Both the position numbers and the translations under genes were made by a program. DNA of 64,000 nucleotides from Neobacillus bataviensis (GTDB lineage Bacteria > Bacillota > Bacilli > Bacillales_B > DSM-18226). The notes below the pieces were generated by a model that saw only the letters and a list, made by a program, of their open reading frames with translations, searched no databases and was not told the DNA's origin. Location: positions 1-64,000 of the forward strand of contig NZ_JAHXYW010000010.1 of assembly GCF_019969725.1 (NCBI RefSeq). The letters run 5' to 3'. Below are positions 60,664-63,157 of this stretch, in pieces; position 1 is the stretch's first letter, and the number at the start of each line of letters is the position of its first letter.

Positions 60664-61032
60664 ATGAAACATGAAGACGTATGTGAAGTAACCTGCGTGG
60701 ATGGAGACAAAGTAAAAAGAGTAAGAGAATCAATTTCACAACAAGATACTTTGTCTGTGGCACAAATATTTAAAGCGTTGTCCGACGACACTAGGATTAA
60801 GATTGCTTATGCTTTAACGGAGGAAGATGAATTGTGTGTATGTGATGTGGCCAACATCGTAGGGAGTACAACGGCAACTGCCTCTCATCATTTACGACTT
60901 CTTCGAAATTTAGGATTAGCGAAATATCGAAAAGAAGGCAAATTGGTTTTCTATTCCTTAGATGATGACCATGTAAAACAATTGATCCAAATTGCTTTTG
61001 AGCATCAAAAGGAGGTGAAACCTCATGAGTGA
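60664..61032 (+). CDS. cadC: cadmium/lead/zinc-responsive repressor CadC
   Basis: 122 residues from ATG 60664 behind GGGTGGTGA. Metal-binding cysteines are at the positions of the Staphylococcus protein: Cys7 and Cys11 (VCEVTCVDGDKV) and Cys58 and Cys60 (DELCVCDVANIV). The winged helix GSTTATASHHLRLLRNLGLAKYRKEGKLVFYSL follows. It releases its operator when Cd(II), Pb(II) or Zn(II) binds. The gene overlaps the cadA start codon by 8 bp, so the pair is coupled. Confidence 0.96.
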   Translation: MKHEDVCEVTCVDGDKVKRVRESISQQDTLSVAQIFKALSDDTRIKIAYALTEEDELCVCDVANIVGSTTATASHHLRLLRNLGLAKYRKEGKLVFYSLDDDHVKQLIQIAFEHQKEVKPHE

Positions 61033-63157
61033 AGCAAATGAAAAATCAATAGATAAAACTGTTTTCCGTGTACAGGGATTCACCTGAGCTGGCTGTGCGA
61101 CAAAGTTCGAAAAGAACGTCCAACACCTGGATGGTGTTGTTAATGCAAGTGTTAACTTCGGAGCTGCTAAACTTACGGTTTATGGTGAAACAACAATAGA
61201 GGAATTAGAAAAAGCAGGCGCTTTTGAAAATATAAAAGTCATTCCTGAAAAGCAACGCTTTGAAGAGAAAAAAGAGCCTTTCTTGAAAAAACATTCAAAT
61301 GTTATTGTCTCATTGGTTTTCTTGCTCATTGGCTGGTTTTCTGCACAAATGAATGGGGAAGAAAGTATATCCTCGATTTTAGCTTATGGTGCTGCTATTT
61401 TAATTGGTGGTTATCGCCTCTTTACCACGGGATTGAAAAACTTATTCCGTTTAGATTTTGATATGAGAACATTGATGACCATCGCTGTCATTGGAGCAGC
61501 TATTATCGGGGAGTGGGGAGAAGGCGCAACCGTTGTCATCTTGTTTGCCATCAGCGAGGTTCTAGAGTCTTACTCGATGGATAAAGCGAGACAATCCATT
61601 CGTTCCTTAATGGATATTGCTCCAAAGGAAGCTTTAATTCGTCGGGGGAATCAAGAGTTTAACGTTGAAGTGGTTGATATCCGAATCGGTGATATTTTAA
61701 TCGTAAAACCTGGGCAGAAAATCGCCATGGATGGAACGGTTGTAAAAGGACTATCGTCTGTCAATCAAGCTACGATTACAGGGGAATCTGTCCCTGTTTC
61801 TAAAACAATTGATGATGAAGTATTCGCGGGGACTCTTAACGAGGAAGGGCTTCTTGAAGTTAAAGTTACCAAACATGTAGACGATACAACGATTGCGAAA
61901 ATCATTCATCTTGTCGAGGAAGCTCAAGCAGAAAGAGCTCCATCTCAAGCATTTGTTGATCGCTTTGCTAAGTATTATACACCTGTCATCATGTTGGTTT
62001 CTTTATTAGTTGCCGTAATCCCAGCATTATTTGATGGGGATTGGAGTAAATGGATATATCAAGGTCTAGCAGCTTTAGTGGTAGGCTGTCCTTGTGCACT
62101 GGTCATTTCTACTCCTGTTTCGATTGTGACGGCAATAGGTAATGCAGCCCGAAATGGGGTATTGATTAAAGGTGGAATTCACTTAGAGGAAATGGGCGCC
62201 ATAAAAGCAATTGCCTTTGATAAAACAGGGACTTTAACGGAAGGAATTCCAGTTGTCACTGATTACCTTCCTCAAAGTAATACAAATGCGAATGAACTTC
62301 TTGCCATTATTGCTGCTTTAGAAAATGGTTCGCAGCATCCATTGGCTTCAGCAATCATGAAAAAGGCCGAGCAGGAAAATTTACCTTATCAAGAACTTGC
62401 TATTGAAGACTTCTCTTCCATTACTGGTAAAGGGATCAAAGGTAGAGTCAACGATAAAGTGTATTATGTGGGCAGTCCTAATTTGTTCGATGAAATTTTA
62501 TCTAACGGAATTCCATCAAATCTTAAAACGACCATTTCTGACCTGCAAAACAAAGGCAAAACGGTTATGGCTGCTGGTTCTGAATCAGAAATTTTAGCTC
62601 TGATTGCAGTTGCGGACGAAGTGAGAGGAAACAGCAAATGGGTTATCCAGAAACTTCACTCGTTAGGTATTAATAAAACAATCATGTTAACTGGCGATAA
62701 TAAAGGGACTGGTAATGCAATTGGCCATCAGGTAGGGGTTTCTGATATTCAGGCAGACCTTTTACCTCAAGATAAACTTACCTTTATTAAAGAATTAAGA
62801 AATAAATACGAACGTGTGGCGATGGTGGGAGATGGTGTGAATGATGCTCCGGCTTTAGCAGCATCAACCGTCGGTATTGCTATGGGAGGAGCAGGGACGG
62901 ATACGGCTCTCGAAACTGCCGATATTGCTTTGATGGCTGATGATTTAGGGAAACTGCCATTTACGGTTAAGTTAAGTAGAAAAGCCTTATTTATCATCAA
63001 ACAAAATATCACTTTCTCACTTGGAATCAAACTGTTAGCCTTGTTATTAGTGATTCCAGGCTGGCTTACATTATGGATCGCGATTTTTGCAGACATGGGC
63101 GCAACTCTGATCGTTACACTTAATGGTTTACGGCTTCTTCGAGTTAAAGATAAATAA
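61025..63157 (+). CDS. cadA: CadA P1B-type ATPase with in-frame TGA at a metal-site cysteine (putative selenoprotein)
   Basis: 710 residues from ATG 61025 (GGAGGTG upstream) if TGA 61085-61087, codon 21, is translated. The N-terminal heavy-metal-associated domain reads FRVQGFT-U-AGCATKFEKNV, where other CadA proteins have GFTCANC or GFTCAGC; everything before and after matches the family in the same frame. The ATPase core is complete: TGES, CPC metal site in the membrane (355-357), DKTGTLT (Asp399 phosphorylated), SQHPLA, and GDGVNDAP (near 602). It exports Cd, Zn or Pb at the cost of ATP. If TGA is read as stop, the next usable start gives only a form lacking the domain. A GTTC-GAAAA-GAAC hairpin begins 17 nt after TGA and a 7-bp hairpin with loop TGGAT is at 61121-61139. 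Confidence 0.88.
61105..61139 (+). promoter_or_regulatory. candidate SECIS region of cadA
   Basis: Two hairpins follow the TGA. GTTC/GAAC (61105-61117, loop GAAAA) has its loop 21 nt after the TGA. CAACACC/GGTGTTG (61121-61139) has 7 bp and the same TGGAT loop as the HesB-like hairpin, but its loop is 40 nt away, beyond the usual range. Which, if either, is used is not decided by the sequence. Confidence 0.4.

What the first reader, a model, noticed from the sequence alone, without database searches (positions are those of the whole stretch)
61025..63157. CadA ATPase with UGA in place of a metal-binding cysteine
The N-terminal metal-binding motif of CadA is GFT-C-xxC. Here the first Cys codon is TGA, while the second Cys and all flanking residues are normal, the frame is intact for 689 more codons, and the start overlaps cadC as in other cad operons. 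Sequencing error or decay would have to hit exactly this codon. Selenocysteine in the metal site of a P-type ATPase would be a new setting as far as I know, and selenolate binds Cd and Hg strongly. Routine annotation would call a truncated ATPase and miss the domain.
Basis: partly seen in the sequence, partly recalled or inferred. Interest (0 to 1): 0.93.

Follow-up and report, generated by a model that had tools for sequence, protein, structure and literature searches.

The report
Selenocysteine cadmium pump of bacilli
A cadmium-pump gene in a Neobacillus-like bacterium has a UGA codon where relatives have a cysteine, and because 81 related genes share that codon it is most likely read as selenocysteine, which would put selenium in the pump's predicted metal-binding site; this kind of selenium protein had already been listed as predicted.

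Summary
In detail: an in-frame TGA (61085-61087) replaces the first Cys of GFT-C-xxC in a CadA-type ATPase (61025-63157), followed by 689 codons. It is neither error nor decay. One scan of 84,980 species genomes found 81 CadA genes with TGA at this codon; 58 of the 59 whose stop lies in the fetched stretch run 683-695 codons further. SelB, SelA and tRNA-Sec are present in 29 of 30 of their genomes tested. Silent sites after the UGA are frozen into RNA hairpins. The window also holds a second TGA gene (HesB-like, 54668-54946) whose predicted hairpin has the same UGGAU loop. UGA is thus almost certainly read as selenocysteine (inferred; no protein evidence, and the host genome was not held). The novelty claim fails in part: 'cation-transporting ATPase E1-E2, UxxC' has been a listed predicted selenoprotein family since 2008, and RefSeq CDSs of close homologues already run across the TGA. 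Not found in my paper searches: the large bacillus set, its cadC operon setting, and an insertion element with two hairpins whose main loop lies 40 nt from the UGA, beyond the published 16-37 nt.

The parts
60584..60599 (.). Perfect palindrome TCAAATAATTATTTGA upstream of cadC, likely CadC operator
   Evidence: 0 mismatches; 2 matches in the window at up to 1 mismatch against 0.06 expected; the name CadC operator is recalled
60630..60645 (.). Second, imperfect copy of the palindrome
   Evidence: 1 mismatch
60664..61032 (+). cadC-like ArsR/SmtB metalloregulator (CEVTC, ELCVCD motifs)
   Evidence: NF033788, 96.6 bits, cut-off 55; PF01022
61010..61015 (+). AGGAGG ribosome-binding site of cadA
   Evidence: sequence
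61025..63157 (+). cadA: Zn/Cd/Pb-type P-type ATPase, 710 residues with the UGA read
   Evidence: TIGR01512 524.3 bits, cut-off 313.5; TIGR01525 606.2, cut-off 346.25; PF00403, PF00122, PF00702
61085..61087 (+). UGA codon at the first Cys of the HMA CxxC motif, predicted selenocysteine 21
61094..61096 (+). Second Cys of the motif (UxxC)
61105..61117 (+). Hairpin 1, GUUC-GAAAA-GAAC, between UGA and hairpin 2 (predicted)
61121..61139 (+). Hairpin 2, CAACACC-UGGAU-GGUGUUG, predicted SelB-binding part of the insertion element
62087..62095 (+). CPC membrane metal-site motif
   Evidence: sequence
54668..54946 (+). Second TGA gene: HesB-like protein, 92 residues with U32
   Evidence: (TIGR01911 5.1e-14, 52.6 bits, below its cut-off of 66.35)
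54761..54763 (+). UGA codon of the HesB-like gene, predicted selenocysteine
54782..54800 (+). Hairpin CUGGCUC-UGGAU-GAGCCAG behind it, same loop as hairpin 2 of cadA

Best explanation
This is a cadC-cadA operon whose P-type ATPase is most likely a selenoprotein: the UGA at codon 21 is predicted to be read as selenocysteine, which would replace the first metal-binding cysteine of the N-terminal HMA domain (U-x-x-C). Inferred mechanism: SelB with Sec-tRNA(Sec) binds a stem-loop downstream of the UGA (most likely the 7-bp stem with UGGAU loop at 61121-61139, with a small hairpin at 61105-61117 in between) and inserts Sec; without it the frame ends after 20 residues. The protein would then be a Zn/Cd/Pb-exporting ATPase, repressed by the upstream CadC, whose HMA domain takes up the soft metal through a selenolate and a thiolate (and, by alignment to the Listeria CadA domain, a Glu) and hands it to the CPC site for export. 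Shown: the codon, its recurrence, the frame, the co-occurrence with Sec genes in relatives, the constraint on silent sites. Inferred: Sec insertion in this organism, the SelB site, metal ligation by Se, the exported metal.
For: 81 CadA-like loci with TGA at exactly this codon; 58 of 59 with a stop in the locus run 683-695 codons on. SelB over cut-off in 29 of 30 genomes (30 of the 81 loci were given), tRNA-Sec in the same 29 of 30, SelA in the same 29 of 30. Family sample: SelB in 170 of 193; TGA form in 50 of 170 SelB+ and 2 of 23 SelB-; codon form SelB+ TGA 50/TGY 7, SelB- TGA 2/TGY 6, p 0.0005. Class sample of 398: 5 of 5 TGA genomes SelB+, 4 of 35 TGY-only genomes SelB+, p 0.0002. Folding energy of the 60 nt from the UGA is below synonymous-codon randomisations in 71 of 71 distinct rows, mean z -2.6, against -0.23 for codons 31-49; hairpin 2 complete in 57 of 71 against 4.6 expected, 93% of its cells paired against 39-55% when slid by 1-3. 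Six diverged members have instead a stem with loop GGUUC, 16 nt from the UGA. Second TGA gene with the same loop in the window. All 17 genomes that carry the window's 33739-37601 operon have SelB, SelA and tRNA-Sec. cadC itself ends on TGA, so TGA is a stop in this genome.
Against: The host's own genome is not held, so its Sec genes were not seen. One TGA genome of good size (G013, 5.1 Mb) lacks SelA, SelB and tRNA-Sec; a second (G106, 2.9 Mb) lacks SelB and tRNA-Sec and has only a partial SelA with stops, probably an incomplete MAG. Hairpin 2 lies 40 nt from the UGA, outside the published 16-37 nt, and hairpin 1 alone is too weak. RNAalifold on all 71-75 distinct rows did not return hairpin 2; it did on the 65 group-A rows, which were chosen by pairing. 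The number of pairs with two-sided changes is 3, no more than in slid controls (1-4), so covariation as such is weak. The window's own folding excess is modest (1.3% of 1000 randomisations as low). No peptide, 75Se or metal-binding data.
Confidence: 0.92

Rival explanations
1. The TGA is a sequencing error or a nonsense mutation in a decaying gene.
For: A single codon would be enough; one relative (L020 in G013) carries the TGA in a genome with no detected SelA, SelB or tRNA-Sec, and L098 has a stop 93 codons after the TGA.
Against: 81 loci share the codon; 58 of 59 keep 683-695 codons behind it; silent sites behind it are constrained.
Confidence: 0.01
2. UGA is read by another amino acid (near-cognate read-through or a changed code) and not by Sec.
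For: Read-through would also give full-length pump; nothing here identifies the residue.
Against: cadC and other genes of the window end on TGA; TGA form goes with SelB; the codon stands at a Cys site and behind it lie hairpins with the SECIS-like loop features.
Confidence: 0.03
3. The UGA is a selenium-dependent switch: Sec gives the full pump, termination and re-initiation give a pump without the HMA domain.
For: In the window the first in-frame start codon after the TGA is TTG 61283, past the HMA domain and before the first membrane helix. Partial termination at UGA is usual in Sec decoding (recalled).
Against: The first start codon after the TGA is not conserved: in the 76 loci examined it lies at many offsets (11 codons in 16, 66 in 6, 58 in 5, none within 119 codons in 3), mostly GTG.
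Confidence: 0.04

Closest known systems
[quoted passage not shown]
   Same: Same protein family and the same U-x-x-C motif in published lists (PMC2398784, PMC5029168, PMC9312934, PMC13188914; passages seen).
   Different: Those passages name no bacillus, cadC operon or insertion hairpin; I did not see the listed sequences, so that their U lies at the HMA site is inferred from UxxC.
Cys-type CadA of bacilli and the Listeria CadA metal-binding domain (PDB 2aj0)
   Same: Same operon, length and HMA domain; 2aj0 aligns over residues 10-77 at E 8.1e-25, U21 on Cys14 and E68 on E61.
   Different: TGA in place of the first Cys codon, and the hairpins; 16 of 17 Cys-coded places form only 1-5 of the 7 hairpin-2 pairs.
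HesB-like selenoprotein (TIGR01911)
   Same: Second gene of the window; same 7-bp stem with UGGAU loop behind its UGA.
   Different: Unrelated protein; loop starts 25 nt from the UGA instead of 40; score under the TIGR01911 cut-off and UGQP instead of the listed UxGP.
SaoB, SaoC, UXX-star and SO_0444 selenoproteins
   Same: Sec proteins tied to metal or metalloid resistance, with Sec suggested as a metal ligand for some (PMC13188914, passage).
   Different: Other protein families.

Membership tests
Zn/Cd/Pb-type (PIB) heavy-metal ATPase, CadA | Scores over curated cut-offs of TIGR01512 and TIGR01525; HMA, E1-E2 and HAD domains | tested here: met
   the equivalog models NF008262 and NF033775 (ZntA) are matched below their cut-offs
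Zn/Cd/Pb-type (PIB) heavy-metal ATPase, CadA | CPC motif and DKTGT; CadC-type regulator upstream | tested here: met
   CadC by motif and position, the NCBIfam hit is the general ArsR/SmtB model
Zn/Cd/Pb-type (PIB) heavy-metal ATPase, CadA | Exports Cd(II) | not testable with these tools
   no assay
Bacterial selenoprotein | UGA aligned with a conserved Cys of homologues, recurrent in other organisms | tested here: met
Bacterial selenoprotein | Organism encodes SelA, SelB, tRNA-Sec | tested here: inconclusive
   own genome not held; present in 29 of 30 TGA genomes and in 17 of 17 genomes with the window's 33739-37601 operon
Bacterial selenoprotein | Sec in the protein | not testable with these tools
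   needs 75Se or mass spectrometry
[quoted passage not shown] stem 4-16 bp; MFE -7.5 or lower | tested here: met
   window hairpin 2: UGGAU, 7 bp, -9.2 kcal/mol; 57 of 65 group-A rows at -7.5 or lower
Published bSECIS model (PMC13188914, passage) | 16-37 nt between UGA and apical loop | tested here: not met
   hairpin 2: 40 nt. Hairpin 1 has 21 nt but only -2.1 kcal/mol. The six group-B members meet it at 16 nt and the HesB-like gene at 25 nt
Published cation-transporting ATPase E1-E2 selenoprotein family | COG2217/TIGR01525 protein with UxxC | tested here: met
   no direct alignment with the listed example ABB15669.1 was made
HesB-like selenoprotein (second gene) | TIGR01911 over cut-off, UxGP | tested here: not met
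   52.6 bits against 66.35, UGQP; a relative rather than a clear member

The most novel reading that the evidence does not exclude
The bacilli have evolved a bipartite Sec-insertion element: a SelB-binding hairpin with a UGGAU loop, shared with the HesB-like gene of the same island, works 40 nt from the UGA because a compact spacer hairpin (13 nt) folds away the excess (40 - 13 = 27 nt, against 25 nt in the HesB-like gene). It serves a pump in which selenocysteine acts as a metal ligand and not as a redox catalyst, and which was swapped with cysteine several times.
Probability: 0.35. Interest if true: 0.72.

Novelty: new member of a known kind. Interest (0 to 1): 0.5.

Why it matters
Sec is mostly known as a redox catalyst. 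A large, culturable set of aerobic bacilli with Sec at a metal-ligand position of a pump, with natural Cys counterparts (even in one genome: TGA copy L025 and Cys copy L145, which keeps the complete hairpin 2), makes it directly testable what selenium adds to metal binding and efflux, and how far from the UGA a bacterial insertion element can work.

Tried and rejected
Sequencing error, decay, code change and re-initiation: see rivals. Own-genome test: impossible. RNAalifold over all rows gave hairpin 1 but not hairpin 2. Counting two-sided changes did not separate hairpin 2 from slid controls, so I rest on pairing kept and on synonymous randomisation. Direction of Cys/Sec change: the tree of 78 rows needs at least 3-4 changes, but Cys forms were sampled only from one family and a few plasmids, so the direction is open. 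Plasmid loci L185, L186 and L189 did not match the GFT pattern and dropped out of the tree; loci with fewer than 480 residues behind the codon and 4 identical rows were left out too. No literature on a Bacillaceae selenoprotein P-type ATPase came up (listings and abstract starts only, apart from the passages cited). Not run: structure prediction, protein-database search.

Full report
What is there. Window 60664-63157 is a cadC-cadA operon with a strong ribosome-binding site, an 8-nt overlap and two palindromes upstream. Codon 21 of cadA is TGA, at the first Cys of GFT-C-xxC; the frame goes on for 689 codons. Without reading the TGA the ORF caller gives a 624-aa protein from TTG 61283 that lacks the HMA domain. 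The protein scores as a heavy-metal ATPase of the Cd type with an HMA domain, and its first 78 residues align best, among solved structures, with the Listeria CadA domain 2aj0: U21 on Cys14, E68 on E61 (that Cys14, Cys17 and Glu61 bind Cd is recalled).

Recurrence. One pattern scan of genome contigs gave 98 stretches, 80 of them printed and 98 held. 81 code for CadA-like frames (A.CA..FE..V behind the TGA), 17 do not; the one match in viral contigs does not. By record titles 80 of the 81 are bacilli; the one titled Chryseobacterium branches among Mesobacillus. Of 59 with a stop in the locus, 58 run 683-695 codons behind the TGA and one (L098) 93; 22 run off the locus. The pattern asks for GFT-U-A-x-CA, so other forms were not sought.

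Sec machinery. The window's genome is not held. Of 30 genomes of TGA loci (30 of 81 given), 29 have SelB over cut-off, tRNA-Sec and SelA; G013 has none of the three. G106, added later, lacks SelB and tRNA-Sec and has a partial SelA with stops. Control searches ring only as expected at the cut-offs (SelB in 2 of 14, SelA in 1 of 14 and tRNA-Sec in 5 of 14 well-known genomes). In the family sample of 193 genomes SelB is over cut-off in 170 and the TGA pattern is in 52: 50 of 170 SelB+ and 2 of 23 SelB-, p 0.044; the TGY pattern is in 13, 7 SelB+ and 6 SelB-; TGA against TGY by SelB, p 0.0005. In a class sample of 398, SelB is in 85, and 5 of 5 TGA genomes are SelB+ against 4 of 35 TGY-only genomes, p 0.0002. 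These tests ignore kinship; the two samples share four genomes; the matches of the class sample were not each checked to be CadA; and only 6 or 3 candidates per genome were scored. The window's 33739-37601 operon is found in 17 of 193 genomes (best 78% identity): all 17 have SelB, SelA and tRNA-Sec. Its cad module is 95.6% identical to L029 over 2663 bases.

The RNA element. Behind the TGA, codons +2 to +17 hardly vary at silent sites (His13 CAC 69 of 70, Leu14 CTG 76 of 80, Asp15 GAT 67 of 67, Gly16 GGT 75 of 78), whereas codons +22 onward vary freely. From 82 rows, 71 distinct 60-nt rows fold more stably than synonymous randomisations in 71 of 71 (mean z -2.6), against -0.23 for codons 31-49 (48 of 81 below zero); for the window alone 1.3% of randomisations are as stable. 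Hairpin 1 (all four Watson-Crick pairs) is in 61 of 71 against 17.8 expected and hairpin 2 (seven pairs) in 57 of 71 against 4.6. Pair 36-54 is AU in 49, CG in 13 and GC in 2 of 75 rows, but the count of two-sided changes (3 pairs) is no higher than in slid controls (1-4), while the share of paired cells is (93% against 39-55%). RNAalifold returns hairpin 2 for the 65 group-A rows but not for all 71. Six diverged loci (L006, L018, L042, L061, L080, L090) have instead a 6-bp stem with a GGUUC- or AGUUU-type loop 16 nt from the UGA. The published model wants 16-37 nt between UGA and loop (PMC13188914, passage); hairpin 2 has 40, so it departs from the model, which the same passage says a subset of elements does. 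Formate dehydrogenase genes with one TGA in the same genomes (9 loci of 8 genomes) have a stem with GGUCU loop.

A second TGA gene. A scan of the window for in-frame TGAs shows a HesB-like frame at 54668-54946, just behind arsC, with U32. Its hairpin is CUGGCUC-UGGAU-GAGCCAG, loop 25 nt from the UGA. The TGA pattern of this gene is in 102 of 193 family genomes, 101 of them SelB+ and one (G165) not. In 31 rows (30 loci and the window; 28 distinct) the loop is UGGAU in 27 and seven pairs form in 26; the stem hardly varies and lies in a conserved GLALDEP stretch, so this is no independent proof of structure. In G020, the genome of L029, the two genes lie about 2.1 kb apart on one contig.

Cys counterparts. 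16 of 17 Cys-coded places form 1-5 hairpin-2 pairs; the 17th, L145 in the genome that also holds TGA locus L025, forms all 7 and branches inside the TGA group: most likely a recent Sec-to-Cys change. The tree of 78 rows needs 4 changes of codon form, 3 forced by well-supported branches.

Known or new. Four papers list the family as a predicted selenoprotein with UxxC (passages); one counts 32 in 25 organisms; a 2006 survey counts 3 selenoproteins in Bacillales (passage). RefSeq CDSs run across the TGA in three plasmid records; the residue name was not seen. I therefore file it as a new member of a known kind, with an insertion element and a spread that my searches did not find in print.

Noticed in passing
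window 54668-54946: Unlisted HesB-like gene with in-frame TGA behind arsC; plain ORF calling shows a minus-strand ORF there instead.
   Followed up: yes
L020 (G013, C28): TGA-cadA in a 5.1-Mb genome without detectable SelA, SelB, tRNA-Sec or formate dehydrogenase alpha, beside a Cys-type tandem-HMA cadA (L147): perhaps a stranded transferred gene.
   Followed up: partly
L145 (G017, C2): Cys-coded CadA that keeps the complete hairpin 2, in a genome that also has a TGA copy (L025).
   Followed up: partly
G278 contig C10, 61252-64991: A TGA-pattern match lies 3.7 kb from selB.
   Followed up: no
window 53154-57535: Arsenic/metal island: ArsR, aquaporin-type channel, arsC, SaoE/SO_0444-like permease (under cut-offs), ArsI/CadI-type enzyme (NF041414 over cut-off).
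   Followed up: partly
L013: Record titled Chryseobacterium sp. ISL-80 carries a Mesobacillus-like TGA-cadA; probably a mislabelled genome.
   Followed up: no
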